A stretch of DNA of 64,000 bases from a virus. Every line of letters starts with the position of its first letter. The first letter of the stretch is position 1. Location of the stretch: IMG/VR virus record IMGVR_UViG_3300033153_010139, positions 1-64,000 of that record; one strand, given 5' to 3'. The notes beneath the pieces are model-generated. The model saw nothing but the letters and a program-made list of their open reading frames with translations, was not told the DNA's origin and made no database searches. The position numbers and the translations under genes were made by a program. This document shows, one piece after another, positions 1,944-60,964 of this stretch.

Positions 1944-2432
1944 ATGAGACAGGAAGCACTGGTCGAGCTGGAGCGGATTCGGAGCGAGGACCCGGACGGC
2001 AAGCTGCACCCCGAAGCGGTCGTGGCCGGGGCCCGGCCCGCAGCCTCACCGCTCCACAGGCACTTCACTTGGGGTAACGACGAGGCAGCGCGGCGCTGGC
2101 GGCTCCACCAAGCGGGCAAGATGATTCGCATGGCGATCACGGTGCTGCCATCGGACAACACGATACCAGTGCGAATGTTCGTCTCGGTCGGCAGCGACCG
2201 AACGGCATCGAGCCCGGTCGGCAGCGGCGGCGGCTACCGCAGTGTCGTGAACGTGATGAGCAGCGAGGAGCTGCTCGCGGAGCTGCTCGACGACGCTCTC
2301 CGCGAGATCAACAATTTCCGCAGGAAGTATCGGCGGCTCACGGCGCTGGCGCCCGTGATCTCCGCAATGGACGACGCTATGGAACTCCTCGGCGATGGAG
2401 ACGACGAGGACGACGAGGACGACGAGGACTAG
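1944..2432 (+). CDS. Conserved phage-type hypothetical protein, acidic tail
   Basis: This 162-aa protein has FTWGNDEAARRWRLHQAGKM near residue 40, a pattern I associate with a small conserved phage family of unknown role. A Ser/Gly-rich middle and a helical part follow. The protein ends in an almost pure Asp/Glu tail (about 13 residues of D and E). The ATG at 1944 is preceded by GGAGGCGAGG. The next gene starts with an equally extreme basic N-terminus, so the two products could interact through charge. That is inference. Confidence 0.7.
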   Translation: MRQEALVELERIRSEDPDGKLHPEAVVAGARPAASPLHRHFTWGNDEAARRWRLHQAGKMIRMAITVLPSDNTIPVRMFVSVGSDRTASSPVGSGGGYRSVVNVMSSEELLAELLDDALREINNFRRKYRRLTALAPVISAMDDAMELLGDGDDEDDEDDED

Positions 2433-2485: not shown

Positions 2486-3244
2486 ATGATCGGGACAGTG
2501 GAAAAGAAGGTCAAGAAGAAGGTCAAGAAGGCGGCCAAGAAGGCCAAGAAGAAGGCGAAGAAGAAGGCGGCCAAGAACGGGACCGGCAACGGCGCTGATC
2601 CCGGGTCCAAGGCACTGGCCATCCTCCCGCCAAACTTCCAGTGGATCGAAGTCCCGATCGTGGGCACGACGGTCTACGTGCAGCACAAGTGGAGCGAGAA
2701 GGCCAGGAAGGCCATGCGCGACGCCCAGGCGGCCGGCTCGTCGGCCAAGCGGAAGGGCGGGAAGCGCGCGCCCAAGGACTTCAACGCGCTCTACAAGGAT
2801 GCGATGCACCGCACCACCGACGGTGGCTACGGGATTCCAGCTGGTGCCTTCTTCAAGGCGCTCGTCTCGGCCTGCAGGCTGTGCGAGTTCAAGATGACGA
2901 TCGCGCGGCAGGCCCTCTACATCCAGGCCGACGCCGAGAGCGCCGATCCCGGTGACCGAGGCGGGCTCGTGCGCATCACGAAGGGCAAGCCGTCGCAGTT
3001 CGAGACGGCGGTTCGGATCCAGCAGACCACCGACATTCGCGTTCGGCCTCTGTGGGAGCCGGGCTGGAAGGCCACCGTCAGGGTGCGCTTCGACGCCGAC
3101 ATTCTCTCGATGGCGGACATCGCCAACTTGTTCATGCGGGCCGGGATGCAGGTCGGCGTCGGCGAGGGCCGCCCGGACACGCCGAGCGGCGGCATGGGCT
3201 GGGGCTTGTTCGAGGTGCTGACGCCGCAAGCGGCCAGCGCGTAA
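2486..3244 (+). CDS. Conserved phage protein with Lys-rich N-terminus (copy 1)
   Basis: This 252-aa protein begins with about 28 residues that are nearly all Lys, Ala and Val. The conserved body includes VGTTVYVQHKWSEKARK, GIPAGAFFKALVSACR, LVRITKGKPS, then W.ATVRVRFDADILS and AGMQVGVGEGRP. These motifs match a widespread phage protein family of unknown function that I know as a recurring hypothetical, often near DNA metabolism genes. The following gene is a diverged tandem copy. The start at 2486 has GGAGGCGAG upstream. Confidence 0.75.
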   Translation: MIGTVEKKVKKKVKKAAKKAKKKAKKKAAKNGTGNGADPGSKALAILPPNFQWIEVPIVGTTVYVQHKWSEKARKAMRDAQAAGSSAKRKGGKRAPKDFNALYKDAMHRTTDGGYGIPAGAFFKALVSACRLCEFKMTIARQALYIQADAESADPGDRGGLVRITKGKPSQFETAVRIQQTTDIRVRPLWEPGWKATVRVRFDADILSMADIANLFMRAGMQVGVGEGRPDTPSGGMGWGLFEVLTPQAASA

Positions 3245-3245
3245 G

Positions 3246-3860
3246 GTGAGAGCGGGTCTGAAAGCGCGCAGGGCGAAAGCCCGCAGGAAAGCCGCCCTGA
3301 AGAAAGCGTGGGCGGACAGCTCGAAGACGTGCACTTTCAAGATCAGGGGAACTGCGCGCTACGTGCAGTTCCCCTGGTGCAGCATCGCTCGGCGCTGCTC
3401 TTGCACTAGCCGGATGGTCAGAACGCACGTCGATCCCGAAAAGGGGTTCGACAGCTACGTCAGTCGGGAAGGCTGGGACGGGATTCCGTGGAGTGCGTTC
3501 CTCTACGCCCTAGTTGGGGCGGCATCGCTCGCGGGACTGTCAAAAGTCGCGGCTTATAATCGTCTGGTCGTGAACGCCGACGGGATCGACGCGTTTTACG
3601 AGAAGCCTCTGGTGAGGATCACCAAAGGCACGCCATCGGGTTTTGAGATGATGGGTCGTGTTCTCGCCGCGTGGGAGGCGGGCTGGGAGGCTACCGTCAG
3701 GATGCGCTACGACCCGGAACGCTTCACGTTGGAAGACGTTTTCAATCTGCTCGCGCGGGCGGGAATGCAGGTCGGGATCGGCGAAGGTCGTCCCGGCAGA
3801 CCGGACGGCGGCTGCGGCTACGGCACGTTCGAGGTGCTGACACAGCAGGCCGGCGCGTAG
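3246..3860 (+). CDS. Tandem paralogue of the preceding protein (copy 2)
   Basis: This 204-aa product is clearly homologous to the 2486 gene: GTARYVQFPW, GIPWSAFLYALVGAA, LVRITKGTPSGFEM, W.ATVRMRYDPE, AGMQVGIGEGRP and GTFEVLTQQA align in order. It is shorter, lacks part of the middle, and its N-terminal ~45 residues are basic but differently composed. The GTG at 3246 follows the previous stop directly with no clear ribosome-binding site, so the true start may be internal or translation may be coupled. Decay of a duplicate is possible, but the frame is intact. Confidence 0.65.
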   Translation: MRAGLKARRAKARRKAALKKAWADSSKTCTFKIRGTARYVQFPWCSIARRCSCTSRMVRTHVDPEKGFDSYVSREGWDGIPWSAFLYALVGAASLAGLSKVAAYNRLVVNADGIDAFYEKPLVRITKGTPSGFEMMGRVLAAWEAGWEATVRMRYDPERFTLEDVFNLLARAGMQVGIGEGRPGRPDGGCGYGTFEVLTQQAGA

Positions 3861-3881
3861 AGATACAAACCAGTAGAGGCT

Positions 3882-3909
3882 GCGCGGCGTGCGCTCCTTC
3901 ACGTCGCGC
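3882..3909 (+). terminator. Strong hairpin after the duplicated genes
   Basis: GCGCGGCGTG and CACGTCGCGC form a 10-bp stem with one G-U pair and an 8-nt loop, starting 21 nt after the stop at 3860. There is no T-run, so it may be a processing or stability hairpin rather than an intrinsic terminator. It marks the last unique sequence before the pentamer array. Confidence 0.5.
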
Positions 3910-3930
3910 GGCTCTCTGCCGGTGTGACAT

Positions 3931-5550
3931 GGCAGGCTAGGTTCGGCATGGCGCGGCTAGGTCCGGCCAGGCCCGGCGCGGTCAGGCACGGCAGGCAGGG
4001 TTCGGCGCGGCAGGGTTCGGCCCGGACGTGGCGGGGCAAGGCAGGCTGGGCAGGGCCAGGCTCGATTCGGCGTGGCTCGTTGCGGCGCGGCGGGGCAGGC
4101 ATGGCAAGGCCGGGACGGGTGCGGCGGGGCTAGGACTGGACTGGCAGGCACGGCGCGGTCGGCTCGGAGCGCTACGGTCAGGTCCGGCTCGGTCCGGCAG
4201 GGACTGGCCAGGCAGGCATGGCAGGGCAGGCGCGGTGTGGTCAGGTCCGACAGGGCTGGGCGCGGCGGGGCCAGGCAGGCTTGGTGTGGTAAGGCCCGGC
4301 TTGGCATGGTCTGTCGAGGACCGGTCAGGCGCGGCGCGGTCAGGCAAGGCAGGCAGGGTTCGGCAGGGCCGGTCGGGGTGTGGTCGGGCTCGGTACGGCA
4401 CGGCAGGCAAGGTTAGGCGCGGCTGGGCGCGGTTCGGCACGACTTGGCAGGCATGGCTCGGCAGGACTAGGCGGGGTCCGTCCTGGCCCGACGCGGTTGG
4501 GCAGGCGCGGCGTGGCTGGGCACGGTATTGCTCGGTTTGGCGGGGCTCGGCAGGGCAGGCGGGGTGTGGCCCGTCGAGGTAGCGCAGGGTCAGGCACGGC
4601 CAGGCCCGGTTCGGCAGGCGAGGACAGGTTCGGGACGGCTAGGCACGGCAGGCACGGCAGGCATGGCAGGGCCGCGCTAGGTTAGGCGTGGCGTGGCGAG
4701 ACCCGGCAGGCGTGGCTCGGCAAGGTTCGTCAGGTTTCGGCACGGCCGGGTTCGGCAGGGCAGGCAGGGTAGGGCCGGGCAGTGCGCGGCAGGGTCCGGT
4801 GCGATTCGGCTGGGCAGGCAGGGTCCGGCGCGGTTGGGCACGGTAAGGCACGGCTAGGCTCGGTCCGGTATGGCCGGGCAGGCAGGGTTAGGCATGTCGA
4901 GGCGTGGCGCGGCGCGGCAGGGTTTGGTGCGGCAGGCGAGGTTCGGTTAGGTCGGGCAGGGTTCGGCGCGGCCAGGCCGGGCCGGGCCGGGCAGGCAAGG
5001 TGAGGCACGGCGAGGCGAGGCTGGACCTGGCTGGGTCCGGCAGGCAAGGCTAGGCGCGGTTCGGTACGGCTTGGCGAGGCAGGCATGGTGAGGCCGGGCT
5101 AGGTCGGGAGCGATTTGGCAAGGTTCGGCAGGCATGGTTTGGCTCGGCCAGGTACGGCAAGGCACGGCCTTGGCACGGCCCGGCGCGGCAGGCAAGGTTT
5201 GGCAAGGCCGGGCGCGGCACGGCCTGACGGGGCTCGGCAGGCGTGGCGGGGCTCGGTTCGGCGTGGTCAGGCTTGGCGCGACGCGGCGCGGCAGGCGAGG
5301 ACAGGTTCGGGACGGTTAGGCGCGGCAGGGTCCGGCCAGGTCCGGCAGGCAAGGCTCGGTTAGGCAGGTCATGGCGCGGCAAGGACCGGCTCGGTACTGC
5401 GCGGCAGGGCAGGCAAGGTTTGGCACGGCACGGCATGGCGGGACGGGGCTTGGCTTGGCGAGGCAGGCGGGGTCCGGCATTGCCCGGCGTGGACAGGCAA
5501 GGCATGGCATGGTGAGGCGGGATTCGGCACGGCAGGCAAGGCAAGGAGAA
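3931..5550. repeat. Degenerate GGYNN pentamer array with GGCA punctuation
   Basis: About 1.6 kb is built from 5-bp units of the form GG[C/T]NN with highly variable last two bases. At intervals one unit is only 4 bp, GGCA, giving GGCAGGC. I located GGCAGGC at 3931, 3990, 4040, 4094, 4143, 4211, 4225, 4274, 4348, 4402, 4446, 4500, 4554, 4613, 4647, 4656, 4705, 4759, 4813, 4877, 4931, 4990, 5039, 5078, 5127, 5187, 5236, 5290, 5344, 5408, 5462 and 5531. Most spacings equal 5n+4, and 54 is the commonest. Open frames exist on both strands but are broken by the 4-bp units, whose spacing is not kept in multiples of 3, so the array looks non-coding. I see no gene, promoter or RNA family in it. Confidence 0.9.
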
Positions 5551-5557
5551 CATCAGC

Positions 5558-5827
5558 ATGGACGATCCGGCCGACCTGCAAGGTCCGCCGCGCTACAAGC
5601 GCGGTGATCGCGTCGTGGGCTACTACGACGAACTGGGCGCTGGTGAGGTTACCGAGTTCACCGGCAGTGCGTACGGCGGTCGGTTCGGCGATTTGGCGCA
5701 CGCTTATCGCGTCTTGTGGGATCCAGTGGAGGACTGGGCCTTCGAGGGGGCGGTATTCGACGACGAGATCGAACCAGAGGGTGCCATCGACGGCCTGGCC
5801 GCGCTGGGGCGGCGAACGGCCAGCTGA
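5558..5827 (+). CDS. Small SH3/KOW-like protein
   Basis: This 89-aa protein includes RGDRVVGYYDELGAGEVTEF, then Y.VLWD, and ends AIDGLAALGRRTAS. The GD-V start, the glycine turn and the VLWD strand suggest a small beta-barrel like those at 1097 and 9456. AAGGAG lies 10 nt before the ATG, immediately after the last pentamer of the array, so expression could depend on transcription through the array. Function is unknown. Confidence 0.65.
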   Translation: MDDPADLQGPPRYKRGDRVVGYYDELGAGEVTEFTGSAYGGRFGDLAHAYRVLWDPVEDWAFEGAVFDDEIEPEGAIDGLAALGRRTAS

Positions 5828-37437: not shown

Positions 37438-39012
37438 ATGGCAACTGCTGGCATAGTCGGCGGCGCTGGCGGCGGCGGCGGCTGGATCATGATCAGGGAC
37501 ATTACCCCGACGACCACCGGGGCCGTCGGCACGAAGACCTACCAGACGCCGGAGAACGACGTTCTCCAAACGGCCGTCAGCAGCACGCTCGACATGGACG
37601 TGCTCGTCAACGCAACCGGCCCGAAGGTCACGGTCAATGGCGTCGTCGGGAACCTGACGAAGATCGCCAGCGAGTCCTACTACGCTGGCACCGTGTCCAT
37701 CTCGGTCACCGGCTCCGGCAACGTGGTGGCGATCCAGGTGCTCCCGGACGACTCGAACGGGGCCGAGGCGAGTGTTGTGGTCACGGTCCAAGCCGGGCCG
37801 GTTGTTCTGACCTGCACGTTCGGCGGCGGCTACCCAGGCGGGCAGACCGAGCTGAAGGCCGGCGACACTTTCCAGATCCTCGGCACGACCGACATAGCGG
37901 CCAACCTGATCGAGATCTCGGACTTCGGGGCGTGCGTTTTCGCCTCCATCGCGGTCGTGTCCGGCACCGCCTTCAACATCACCGGCACCATCGCGGATCG
38001 CGGCACGACCGTTCAAGACCTCGCCGCGCGCGTGAGAGCGCGCAACGCCTCGCTCGCGTTCGGCGCCACGTTCGACACGAACACGGCCGGCAGTACCGAC
38101 GGTGTTCACACGGTGAAGTGCAACAACCGCTACCCCGCCTTCACCGACAACGGCACGACGTTCCCCGGCGGGCAGACGGCCTTCAAGGGTACCGAAGCTG
38201 GCAGCCAGGACACGTCGGTCTCGTACTTCGACACGCTCGCCTACTCGTCACCGCATGGCGACTTCGCGATCGGTTCGCCGACGGCTTACGTACAGAACAA
38301 GCCGATCACCTGCACGAACCCTGGCGACTACAACGACTCGGCAACGAACTTCACGATCATCGCCACGCGCTCGGCCAACGCGGCGGTCTCGGTGTTCACC
38401 AAGACGATCGAGGTGGCCGACGTCGCTCCGGTGGTCACGGTCGCCCAGCCAGCTGCCCGCTTGCGCAGCGGCGGGAACGACAGCACGGCGGCCCAGAACC
38501 ACGTGATCACGGCGACCAGCAACCAGAACCTCGCCGCTGCGCCGCCTCTCACCGTGCCGGTTGCCGGCACGTGGCAAGGCGGCGGCTTCGTCGGCGGTCC
38601 CAAGGTCTGGACCAGGACGATCCAGATCCACGACAACGACGCGAAGGGTACGGCGGCGTGGGCCTTCACCGCGCCGCCGGTGAACAACGCCGGAACGTCG
38701 GCGACCATCGCCGGTAACCAGGTCAACGGCGGCTTCGTGGTGCGCAACGTGACGTTCGCCGCGTTCAGCCAGACGGCAACGATCGGCGCCGAGGTCGTCA
38801 CGTACACCAAGCTCACGGCCGGGATCTTCACGGCCACCAGCAACGCCTCGATACGGAACGCTGTCCAAGGCAACACGTCGGACCTCTTGGACACCTACAC
38901 CGTGCTGGCGCTTGCCGTGAACCCGACCACGGTTCACTGGAACGACGTCGCCGCCGCGTCCTCGAACAGCGGCGGCACGGCGCAGCTCCTATCGCTTGAG
39001 GAGGCTGTGTGA
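37438..39012 (+). CDS. Ig-like repeat virion protein (adhesin-like)
   Basis: This 524-aa protein has a Gly-rich start (GGAGGGGGW) and then successive beta domains, for example GPVVLTCTFGGGYPGGQTEL and KAGDTFQILGTTDIAANLIE, with a related PAFTDNGTTFPGGQTAFKGT later. It is Thr/Ala/Val-rich without a catalytic motif. Likely an extended surface-exposed protein of the baseplate. AGGGAG precedes the ATG. Confidence 0.5.
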   Translation: MATAGIVGGAGGGGGWIMIRDITPTTTGAVGTKTYQTPENDVLQTAVSSTLDMDVLVNATGPKVTVNGVVGNLTKIASESYYAGTVSISVTGSGNVVAIQVLPDDSNGAEASVVVTVQAGPVVLTCTFGGGYPGGQTELKAGDTFQILGTTDIAANLIEISDFGACVFASIAVVSGTAFNITGTIADRGTTVQDLAARVRARNASLAFGATFDTNTAGSTDGVHTVKCNNRYPAFTDNGTTFPGGQTAFKGTEAGSQDTSVSYFDTLAYSSPHGDFAIGSPTAYVQNKPITCTNPGDYNDSATNFTIIATRSANAAVSVFTKTIEVADVAPVVTVAQPAARLRSGGNDSTAAQNHVITATSNQNLAAAPPLTVPVAGTWQGGGFVGGPKVWTRTIQIHDNDAKGTAAWAFTAPPVNNAGTSATIAGNQVNGGFVVRNVTFAAFSQTATIGAEVVTYTKLTAGIFTATSNASIRNAVQGNTSDLLDTYTVLALAVNPTTVHWNDVAAASSNSGGTAQLLSLEEAV

Positions 39013-58495: not shown

Positions 58496-60964
58496 ATGGC
58501 AATCCGAGCAAAGCAAATGCTGTCGAGCACTTTCGACAGCACCCAGGTCACCCGGCTGTTCGCGGCACAAGCAATCGCCGGCTCCAAAATCGCCAATGGC
58601 GACATCACCGGAACGCAGTTAGCGACGTCGGTGGCCGGCTCCGGCCTGACCGGCGGCGGCGGTTCGGCGCTGGCTGTCGAGCCCAACGTTACCGACAACG
58701 GCCAGGTTCCCGGGCTGGAGGCCGCGGCCAACGGCGTACGGATCGCGGCTGCGGCAGCTGGCAATGGCCTCGCGGGCGGCGGTGGCACGGCGCTGTCCGT
58801 GGATGTGGACTCGGAGACGGGTTCCAACATCCAGCCGGCCAATCTCACCGCCAACGGCGTGGGCGTGGACATCAACGCCATCGCCGGCACCGGTGTCGAA
58901 GCCGACGGTTCCGCCAACCTGCGCCTCGCAACCCAAGGCAACGGTATCGCCGGCGGCAACGGTTCGACCCTGAGCGTGGACCCGGACTCCGAGAGCGGCG
59001 GCAACACCGAGCCAGTGTCCGTGGGCGCCAACGGCGTCGGGCTCAACGTGTCCGGCATTGCCGGCACCGGCATCGAGGCCGATGGGTCGGCGAACCTGCG
59101 CCTCGCCGCACAGGGCAACGGCATTACCGGTGGCGCCGGTTCGACCTTGTCGGTCGATCCTGACACCGGCATTGCTGTTGGCGCGAGCGGCGTTGCCGTC
59201 GATGTCGGATCGACGGTGGACTTCTCCGGCGACACTCCAGTCTGGACATTCGGCAACGAGACCACGGCCGAGGGGCTATTCGTCACAGGTACGCCGCAAG
59301 ACGCCAACCACGTGCCCAACAAGAGCTACGTGGACAACGCAATCACTGGACTCACCTGGCTGCCGCCGGTGCATGTCAAGGAGATGATCGGCTCGGACGC
59401 TGCGCTGGACATCGAGGGGTTCTCCCCAGCTGCCGGCGACGCCTACGTGATCGACACGGCCAACGGCGCCGGCGTGCTCGCCGGTGCGACAGTGGGCGAC
59501 ATCTGGGAGTACAGCGGATCCGCGTGGGCGCTGATCATCGCCGGCGACGGCGGCTATGTAGCCAACGGCTACCGAGCACTCGCCTCGATCCAGACGGCGC
59601 TCAACGGTTCCATCGGGTTGGTGAACGACACCGACGACGGCAAGGTGTTGGAGTGGGATGGCACGAGCCTGACCCCGGCCAAGACCTCGCCGTCCAGTGG
59701 CGACGCGGCCCTGATCACAGATCAGGACGCGGACGGCGACTCGATCTACGCCAACAGCGCCTTCACGTTCGAGGGCGCGGTCCCGACCGGAACGTGGATC
59801 CAGTTCTCTGGCGCGGGGTCGATCAACGCTGGCGCTGGCCTCAGCAAGGACGGCAACACGATCAACGTTGGCGACGCCAACAAGGGCGTCCAGGCTAACG
59901 CGGACGACCTGGAAATCGCCGCCAGCGAGATCGTCAGCAACGGTCTTGGCGTAGGCGCCAGCTCACACCTGCTGGCCGTCAAGCCGAACACCGCCGACAA
60001 CGGTGGTGTTCCTGGCGTGGAGGTCGCGGCCAACGGGCTGAGGCTCGCGGCTGCGGCAGCTGGCGATGGCCTGGCCGGAGGCGCGGGCGACGCGCTCTCG
60101 GTGGATTCCGACACGGAGACCGGCGGAAACATCCAGGGCGTCAACGTCACAGCGAACGGCGCTGGGCTCGATGTCTCGGCCGTTGCCGGTACTGGCGTTG
60201 AGGCGGACGGTTCCGCGAACCTGCGCCTCGCGACGCAGGGCAACGGCATCGCCGGCGGCAACGGTTCGACGTTGAGCGTCGATTCCGACACGGAAACTGG
60301 CGGGAATGTCCAGGGCGCCAACGTCACGGCCAACGGCGTAGGTGTAGACATCAACGCAATCGCCGGCACCGGTCTCGAAGCCGACGGCAGCGCGAACCTT
60401 CGTCTGGCGACGCAGGGCAATGGCATCTCCGGCGGCAACGGTTCGACGTTGAGCGTGGATCCCGACACCGGCATTGCCGTCGGCGCCAGCGGCGTCGCTA
60501 TCGATGTCGGCTCGACGGTGGACTTCTCCGGCGATACGCCGGTTTGGACCTTCGGCAACGAGACCACTGCTGAGGGGCTATTCGTCACCGGCACGCCGCA
60601 AGACGCCAACCACGTGCCCAACAAGAGCTACGTGGATACCGCTGTCGGGAACGTCAACACGGCGGCCCTGACCGCATCCGACAAGGCCAGGATCCCGTCG
60701 TCCGCGACGTCCGGGAACTACTCAACGACTGGCCTCACGATTTCGGCCACGCCGCTCGGCTGGGTCGGGATCTACGTCAACGGTATCCTCTACGAGCTGG
60801 GCGCCGACCGCACGAAGGCGTGCTACTTCAGCTCGGACGGCGGCACGACCGCCAAGGCGATTGCGGCCATCGCCAGTGGCGACACGCTCTACTGGAACGG
60901 TTCGATCATTGGCTGGGAACTCGACGACTCCACCGACGTGGTGGACATGGTTTACGAGACCTAG
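58496..60964 (+). CDS. Large repeat-rich tail fibre with internal duplication
   Basis: This 822-aa protein starts IRAKQMLSSTFDSTQVTRLF, then has many ~48-residue units with ANGVGVDINAIAGTGVEADG and GNGIAGGNGSTLSVDPD. A block (IAVGASGVAVDVGSTVDFSG, then FVTGTPQDANHVPNKSYVD) occurs twice, encoded at about 59162-59338 and 60464-60640, with similar but not identical bases. The C-terminus (LGWVGIYVNGILYELGADRT) is a likely tip. Related to the 50597 fibre. GGAAGAC precedes the ATG. Confidence 0.75.
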   Translation: MAIRAKQMLSSTFDSTQVTRLFAAQAIAGSKIANGDITGTQLATSVAGSGLTGGGGSALAVEPNVTDNGQVPGLEAAANGVRIAAAAAGNGLAGGGGTALSVDVDSETGSNIQPANLTANGVGVDINAIAGTGVEADGSANLRLATQGNGIAGGNGSTLSVDPDSESGGNTEPVSVGANGVGLNVSGIAGTGIEADGSANLRLAAQGNGITGGAGSTLSVDPDTGIAVGASGVAVDVGSTVDFSGDTPVWTFGNETTAEGLFVTGTPQDANHVPNKSYVDNAITGLTWLPPVHVKEMIGSDAALDIEGFSPAAGDAYVIDTANGAGVLAGATVGDIWEYSGSAWALIIAGDGGYVANGYRALASIQTALNGSIGLVNDTDDGKVLEWDGTSLTPAKTSPSSGDAALITDQDADGDSIYANSAFTFEGAVPTGTWIQFSGAGSINAGAGLSKDGNTINVGDANKGVQANADDLEIAASEIVSNGLGVGASSHLLAVKPNTADNGGVPGVEVAANGLRLAAAAAGDGLAGGAGDALSVDSDTETGGNIQGVNVTANGAGLDVSAVAGTGVEADGSANLRLATQGNGIAGGNGSTLSVDSDTETGGNVQGANVTANGVGVDINAIAGTGLEADGSANLRLATQGNGISGGNGSTLSVDPDTGIAVGASGVAIDVGSTVDFSGDTPVWTFGNETTAEGLFVTGTPQDANHVPNKSYVDTAVGNVNTAALTASDKARIPSSATSGNYSTTGLTISATPLGWVGIYVNGILYELGADRTKACYFSSDGGTTAKAIAAIASGDTLYWNGSIIGWELDDSTDVVDMVYET

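What the first reader, a model, noticed from the sequence alone, without database searches (positions are those of the whole stretch)
3931..5550. 1.6-kb array with a two-level grammar: GGYNN pentamers reset by a GGCA tetramer
The stretch is neither random low-complexity nor an ordinary tandem repeat. Base positions 1-2 of each 5-mer are almost always GG, position 3 is C or T, and positions 4-5 look free. At 29-30 places the unit is cut to 4 bp, always GGCA, giving GGCAGGC. Spacings between these marks are almost all 5n+4: 54 most often, also 44, 49, 59, 64, 69, 74, with rare 50, 60 or 68. Keeping a strict anchor while the rest varies means something reads the phase, whether a protein on DNA, an RNA fold or a replication process. 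I know of no described phage element with this grammar. It lies between an accessory gene pair ending in a hairpin and a small SH3-like gene.
Basis: seen in the sequence. Interest (0 to 1): 0.9.

Follow-up and report, generated by a model that had tools for sequence, protein, structure and literature searches.

The report
Phage RNA-guide array (VIPR type)
The strange 1.6-kb repeat is a library of about 30 short RNA guides that a virus of bacteria carries beside a CRISPR-like protein, most likely to shut down rival viruses; the system was first described in a 2026 preprint, and this is an unusually large, tail-less, punctuated example.

Summary
In detail: window 3926-5550 is a chain of GGYNN units with 32 GGCAGGC marks, and 28 of 31 spacings are 5n+4. 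The two N positions are essentially free (1.99 and 1.94 bits).

It is a VIPR (Viral Interference Programmable Repeat) guide array. The gene just upstream (2486-3244, with a diverged copy at 3246-3860) belongs to the same family as the SUSP1 Vipr protein and is predicted to have a CRISPR RAMP fold. The same gene-array pair recurs in Mycobacterium and Gordonia phages, a cyanophage, most IMG/VR relatives and several bacterial genomes, with GCAGG-type marks.

In this clade the GGCA mark delimits guides. One inter-mark guide of Mycobacterium phage Quico, read by the published 1-nt-skip rule, matches the tape-measure gene of Che8, Squirty, Minnie and Wachhund at 19/20 letters, skipped bases falling on codon wobble positions. 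Quico's own copy scores 14/20. None of 348,956 shuffled guides did as well.

No target of the window's own guides was identified. VIPR is described in a preprint (PMC13142463). Size, absence of tails and tetramer punctuation differ from the characterised type II; its supplement was unreadable here.

The parts
1944..2432 (+). Candidate vipr-accessory gene (phrog_15946), 162 aa; its homologues lie next to vipr and the array in other phages (Cy-LDV1 g33, UmaThurman gp41, Mattes gp53, ODay gp20)
   Evidence: hmmscan phrog_15946 3.9e-18; different family from the gene next to vipr in SUSP1 (phrog_5926)
2486..3244 (+). vipr gene: RAMP-fold guide-RNA-binding protein, 252 aa, Lys-rich N-terminal helix, Gly-rich loop GMQVGVGEGRP..GGMGWG
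   Evidence: phrog_4652 4e-17, the same family as SUSP1 Vipr (1.4e-96); profile hits PDB 36pp 'SUSP1 Vipr protein' 1.8e-8; AF2 pLDDT 85.5; top 50 Foldseek hits are Csm3/Cas7-type CRISPR subunits
3246..3860 (+). diverged tandem vipr copy, 204 aa, 39% identical, lacking about 8 residues (TTDIRVRP) and the conserved CR..FKMT motif; degenerate or a specialised subunit
   Evidence: phrog_4652 6.2e-6; BLASTP 4e-37 to 2486-3244
3926..5550 (+). vrRNA (guide) array: GGYNN units, 32 GGCAGGC marks, 31 inter-mark blocks; 26 of them are in phase and 34-74 nt long, about 10 NN pairs on average
3931..3937 (+). first punctuation mark GGCA|GGC (array start)
5531..5537 (+). last punctuation mark GGCA|GGC, followed by AAGGCAAGGAGA and the ATG of the next gene
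5558..5827 (+). small downstream ORF, 89 aa, no family match; probably not part of the system

Best explanation
This is the guide-RNA array of a phage-encoded VIPR system. A precursor RNA is read from the + strand. Vipr subunits (2486-3244) bind it one per pentamer, holding GGY and exposing NN. Each stretch between two GGCA marks is one guide of about 7-14 NN pairs; the concatenated NN letters, with one skipped base between pairs, specify a double-stranded DNA site, preferentially along codons with the skip at the wobble base. The 4-nt unit breaks the register and ends the guide, so one transcript carries about 30 guides without separate tails. The complex then binds rival phages or prophages and blocks their transcription. 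Shown here: the grammar, protein family, predicted fold, recurrent pairing of gene and array, and one natural target obeying the rule for a relative's inter-mark block. Taken from the preprint: RNA expression, binding, repression. Inferred: that the window's array is expressed, that one subunit covers one pentamer, that GGCA acts as guide boundary in the RNA, and that its targets are competing phages.
For: (1) The protein is in the same PHROG family as SUSP1 Vipr, hits the solved SUSP1 Vipr by profile, and has a RAMP fold. (2) The array is next to this gene on the same strand in the array-bearing GenBank phages examined, in 63 of 80 IMG/VR loci by a strict parser (1 of 80 on the opposite strand), in 10 of the 12 loci from bacterial genome assemblies, and looser arrays occur in most of the rest. 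It stays GC-rich in 41-44% GC genomes and becomes GGTNN in a 33% GC genome. (3) GGY is constrained and NN is free. (4) The Quico guide between two GGCA marks matches the Che8 tape-measure gene at 19/20 under the 1-nt skip; the first 9 pairs match 18/18, the skip is at the wobble base, and matching stops at the block edges. It hits Squirty, Minnie and Wachhund equally despite synonymous differences at skipped bases, but Quico's own site only at 14/20. None of 348,956 permutations reaches it. (5) None of the window's guides hits its own genome above chance. (6) The published mechanism: PMC13142463.
Against: No target was identified for any guide of the window itself. Four exact IMG/VR scans gave 0, 0, 0 and one match; one of the zeros was a guide of another phage. 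The single match lies out of the wobble frame with mismatching ends, as chance would give. Relatives of the window phage gave nothing above controls. Only 1 of 30 mycobacteriophage and Gordonia phage guides found a target in the few mycobacteriophage genomes tried. No transcription data exist, and no promoter-like site was found by a sigma-70 consensus scan. Vap family membership cannot be checked without the supplement.
Confidence: 0.93

Rival explanations
1. The array is a dedicated DNA or RNA landing site (origin, centromere or decoy) for a phage protein; the NN letters carry no message and drift freely.
For: Strict GG phase, free NN, proximity to early-region genes (excisionase, Bet, antirepressor) in other phages.
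Against: A decoded block of a relative matches a rival phage gene in four genomes and not the phage's own copy. The adjacent protein belongs to the Vipr family, shown experimentally in the preprint to use such RNAs as guides.
Confidence: 0.04
2. The array is a G-rich structural element (two-tier G-quadruplexes or an R-loop-forming tract like immunoglobulin switch regions).
For: GG every 5 nt on the transcript strand and GC skew of about 0.3.
Against: Neither structure needs a phase-exact pyrimidine at position 3 or a tetramer reset. L038 keeps the grammar with AGYNN units, which lack GG runs. No Rfam match.
Confidence: 0.02
3. The array is a decayed, non-functional VIPR array in this phage, since some units are broken and the second vipr copy looks degenerate.
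For: Some units deviate (GA, GT, CG starts); three blocks have lost phase; 3246-3860 lacks conserved residues.
Against: 28 of 31 spacings and about 90% of GG anchors are intact over 1.6 kb; the first vipr copy is intact and folds confidently.
Confidence: 0.1

Closest known systems
VIPR systems, type II (Escherichia phage SUSP1, Pseudomonas fulva prophage; PMC13142463)
   Same: Vipr protein family (phrog_4652), RAMP fold, GGY/NN guide RNA encoded beside vipr, 1-nt skip reading confirmed here for a relative's guide, phage-borne.
   Different: SUSP1 has 4 separate guides of about 100 nt with a structured 3' tail, mostly GGTNN and no tetramers. Here about 30 guides are fused head to tail with no tail, separated only by GGCA. 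The accessory gene is phrog_15946 instead of phrog_5926.
VIPR types with 'staggered arrays with overlapping vrRNAs' (named in PMC13142463, fig. S18)
   Same: Multi-guide arrays; probably the class to which this array belongs.
   Different: Cannot be compared: the supplement is not readable here and the main text gives no sequence or tetramer rule.
CRISPR Class 1 RAMPs (Csm3/Cas7, types III-A and VII)
   Same: Predicted fold (Foldseek E down to 7.8e-5) and a repeating protein backbone on a guide RNA.
   Different: No CRISPR repeats, no spacers, no Cas genes; the guide is interrupted every 5 nt; TM-scores below 0.5.
TRAP (11 NNGAG-type repeats bound by an 11-mer ring)
   Same: 5-nt RNA periodicity with about 11 units per block (from memory, not tested).
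   Different: The neighbouring protein is a RAMP, not TRAP.

Membership tests
VIPR | Vipr protein, single-RRM RAMP with glycine-rich loop | tested here: met
   phrog_4652 shared with SUSP1 Vipr; hmmsearch to PDB 36pp 1.8e-8; RAMP fold; conserved GxGxxRP..G loop in 51 sequences
VIPR | GGY/NN tandem pentamers in an intergenic stretch beside vipr, with hypervariable NN | tested here: met
VIPR | 9-16 repeats per guide | tested here: met
   inter-mark blocks in the window mostly hold 9-12 units (7-14 overall), average 10.1 NN plus the tetramer
VIPR | Guide matches DNA targets in competing elements with a 1-nt skip | tested here: inconclusive
   Met for a relative with the same punctuation (Quico against Che8, Squirty, Minnie, Wachhund); not found for the window's own guides
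VIPR | vipr-accessory gene (vap1-6) | tested here: inconclusive
   phrog_15946 is consistently adjacent but its vap class cannot be checked
VIPR | vrRNA expressed and bound by Vipr | not testable with these tools
   needs RNA sequencing and pull-down
VIPR type II | guides capped by an invariant structured 3' tail | tested here: not met
   blocks are contiguous, no tail sequence; so not type II
CRISPR-Cas | identical repeats with unique spacers and cas genes | tested here: not met
   no identical repeat-spacer pattern and no cas family hits among the neighbouring ORFs
Hammerhead-interspersed VIPR arrays | hammerhead ribozymes between guides | tested here: not met
   Rfam scan of 3200-5700 with E up to 1: no match

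The most novel reading that the evidence does not exclude
The GGCA tetramer is a one-unit punctuation code: a single 4-nt step breaks the 5-nt register of the Vipr filament, so one unprocessed or simply cut transcript holds a library of about 30 independent, tail-less guides. This would be a VIPR architecture not spelled out in the preprint, and the second vipr copy could be a dedicated end subunit.
Probability: 0.3. Interest if true: 0.75.

Novelty: new member of a known kind. Interest (0 to 1): 0.62.

Why it matters
VIPR is proposed as the ancestor of CRISPR and is known from one recent preprint. This finding adds a phage with about 30 guides (the largest array among all loci fetched here), and a punctuation rule conserved from actinophages to Bacteroidota assemblies. 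It also gives independent support for the skip rule in a tail-less clade, with a natural target in lab-tractable mycobacteriophages (Quico against Che8, Squirty, Minnie and Wachhund), including spared self DNA and tolerance of synonymous changes. That makes guide boundaries, guide turnover and self/non-self choice directly testable in M. smegmatis.

Tried and rejected
Target search for the window's guides: own 119 kb and about 0.7 Mb of VIPR loci; relatives of the phage found by tail sheath (best 18/20, about the level expected from the number of windows tested, not accepted); exact IMG/VR scans of the cores of blocks 4817, 3935 and 4935 and of one L081 guide (one 18/18 match in a Dam-type methylase gene, out of wobble frame with mismatching ends, taken as chance). 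Guides of Bradyrhizobium and Rhodanobacteraceae prophages against 266 and 234 genomes: only 2-mismatch hits equal to controls, or none. One UmaThurman 8-pair sub-guide matches Che8 exactly but is short and from a phage of another host, so treated as chance. Rfam, hammerhead: none. Sequence search for the window's own Vipr in IMG/VR found nothing by strict patterns; the alignment-based search did. Literature search by 'pentanucleotide repeat' or GGCAGGC found nothing useful; the PDB hit led to the preprint. TRAP-ring, G-quadruplex/R-loop and iteron ideas were dropped once the Vipr link and a natural target appeared.

Full report
OBSERVATION. Window 3926-5550 is a run of pentamers GGYNN interrupted by GGCA tetramers. 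I count 32 GGCAGGC marks; 28 of the 31 spacings are 5n+4 and 54 is commonest. Dinucleotide shuffles give 3.6 +/- 1.9 marks, lag-5 identity 0.329 +/- 0.011 (observed 0.55) and lag-54 identity 0.329 +/- 0.011 (observed 0.54); P for the phase is 6e-17. Entropy per unit position is 0.17, 0.52, 1.02, 1.99 and 1.94 bits, so GGY is held and NN is free. There is no second array in the 119-kb record.

SAME GRAMMAR ELSEWHERE. blastn against GenBank phages found 33 records with similar sequence: Mycobacterium Cheoctovirus phages, Gordonia phages and cyanophage Cy-LDV1. In each phage examined the array adjoins a gene of phrog_4652. It lies 5' of the array in Gordonia, the cyanophage and the window, and 3' in the mycobacteriophages. 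IMG/VR relatives show the same: by a strict parser, 63 of 80 loci have an array on the coding strand and 1 of 80 on the other strand. Most of the remainder carry a looser version with GCAGG marks. Loci from bacterial genome assemblies (among them Roseococcus, Bradyrhizobium, Azohydromonas and a Bacteroidota MAG) also have it. Arrays stay GC-rich in genomes of 41-44% GC. Variants keep the logic: AGYNN with AGCA|GGC in L038 and GGTNN with GGCA|GGT in the 33% GC locus L135.

IDENTITY. A profile of the neighbouring proteins hits one PDB sequence, 36pp 'SUSP1 Vipr protein', E = 1.8e-8. SUSP1's protein is itself phrog_4652 (1.4e-96). AlphaFold2 on 51 relatives gives pLDDT 85.5 and pTM 0.73; the top 50 Foldseek hits are all CRISPR RAMP subunits, mostly Csm3/Cas7-type, best E 7.8e-5, TM below 0.5. 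The preprint PMC13142463 describes VIPR: Vipr oligomerises on an RNA of alternating GGY/NN, the NN letters pair with DNA with one skipped base between pairs, usually at codon wobble positions, and the complex represses rival phages and prophages.

DOES THE BLOCK BETWEEN TWO GGCA MARKS ACT AS ONE GUIDE? I decoded 258 blocks from all loci. Against the mycobacteriophages Che8 and Tweety, a Quico block (AA-TT-AT-TT-TT-AT-GC-CC-TC-AT) matched Che8 gene 14 (tape measure) at 19/20 with a 1-nt skip, against 13, 17 and 14 with 0, 2 and 3 nt. The first nine pairs are perfect. The one mismatch is the last letter of the closing AT unit, which is common just before GGCA in these phages. The letters beyond the block edges do not continue the match (flanks, read by eye). 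Skipped bases are codon third positions of LEGAINNMNF. Squirty, Minnie and Wachhund match equally, with synonymous differences only at skipped bases. Quico's own tape measure has VDGALSNMNA and scores 14/20. None of 348,956 permutations of the pairs reaches one mismatch or fewer in the same 591-kb (both-strand) set; 30 guides were tried in that set. This is the natural-target test the family needs, passed by a relative of the window's array with the same punctuation.

THE WINDOW'S OWN GUIDES. They show no match to their own genome above permuted controls, which is expected for a weapon against others. No target was found: the closest relatives of the phage that could be fetched are at most 56% identical in tail sheath, and searches there and in IMG/VR scans were negative or at chance. 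The statement that it targets rivals is therefore inferred.

ANATOMY. The locus is: candidate accessory gene 1944-2432 (phrog_15946); vipr 2486-3244; a diverged copy 3246-3860 (39% identical, missing conserved residues); then the array. Arrays begin and end with a mark. In all loci together the first pair after a mark favours a purine first letter (p = 6e-14) and the last pair before a mark favours A first (p = 7e-28); in the window only the first effect is seen (p = 0.002). A stretch recurs inside the array (24-27 nt shared at 4612 and 5289), so the array probably grows partly by recombination. SUSP1 guides by contrast are separate, have structured tails and no tetramers, so this is not type II. 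No hammerhead was found.

VERDICT. A VIPR guide array, confidence 0.93. What may be new is the tetramer punctuation, about 30 fused guides in one large myophage, and the mycobacteriophage target. The preprint mentions 'staggered arrays with overlapping vrRNAs', which may be this class; its supplement could not be read.

Noticed in passing
L038:5607-5900: A 43%-identical Vipr relative has AGYNN units with AGCA|GGC marks instead of GGYNN; position 1 appears able to change between guanine and adenine.
   Followed up: partly
L135:1699-1980: A 33% GC Bacteroidota MAG carries a GGTNN version with GGCA|GGT marks, a contrast useful for finding which bases the protein needs.
   Followed up: partly
L139:1433-1461 (Che8 gene 14): Natural target of a Quico guide; also present in Squirty, Minnie and Wachhund, absent from Quico, Tweety and Fruitloop.
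   Followed up: yes
window:5855-6475: ORF with a phage integrase catalytic domain (Pfam 1.6e-7) but only 206 aa, close to the array in a myophage with phiKZ-like tail sheath relatives.
   Followed up: no
window:15-1100: HNH homing endonuclease-like protein with two HNH_3 domains just upstream of the VIPR locus.
   Followed up: no
window:16697-19441 and 37438-39012: Two different tail-sheath-like proteins in one phage (phrog_23/17610 and phrog_15433); the second is 38% identical to that of jumbo Pseudomonas phage PhiPA3.
   Followed up: partly
window:60104-60468: 177-bp tandem repeat, 2.1 copies, 79% matches, inside the ORF 58496-60964.
   Followed up: no
L026:2967-3148 and 3774-3906 (Cy-LDV1): Two arrays flank the phrog_15946 gene in one phage; several other loci (L032, L043, L108, L126) also carry more than one array near vipr.
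   Followed up: partly
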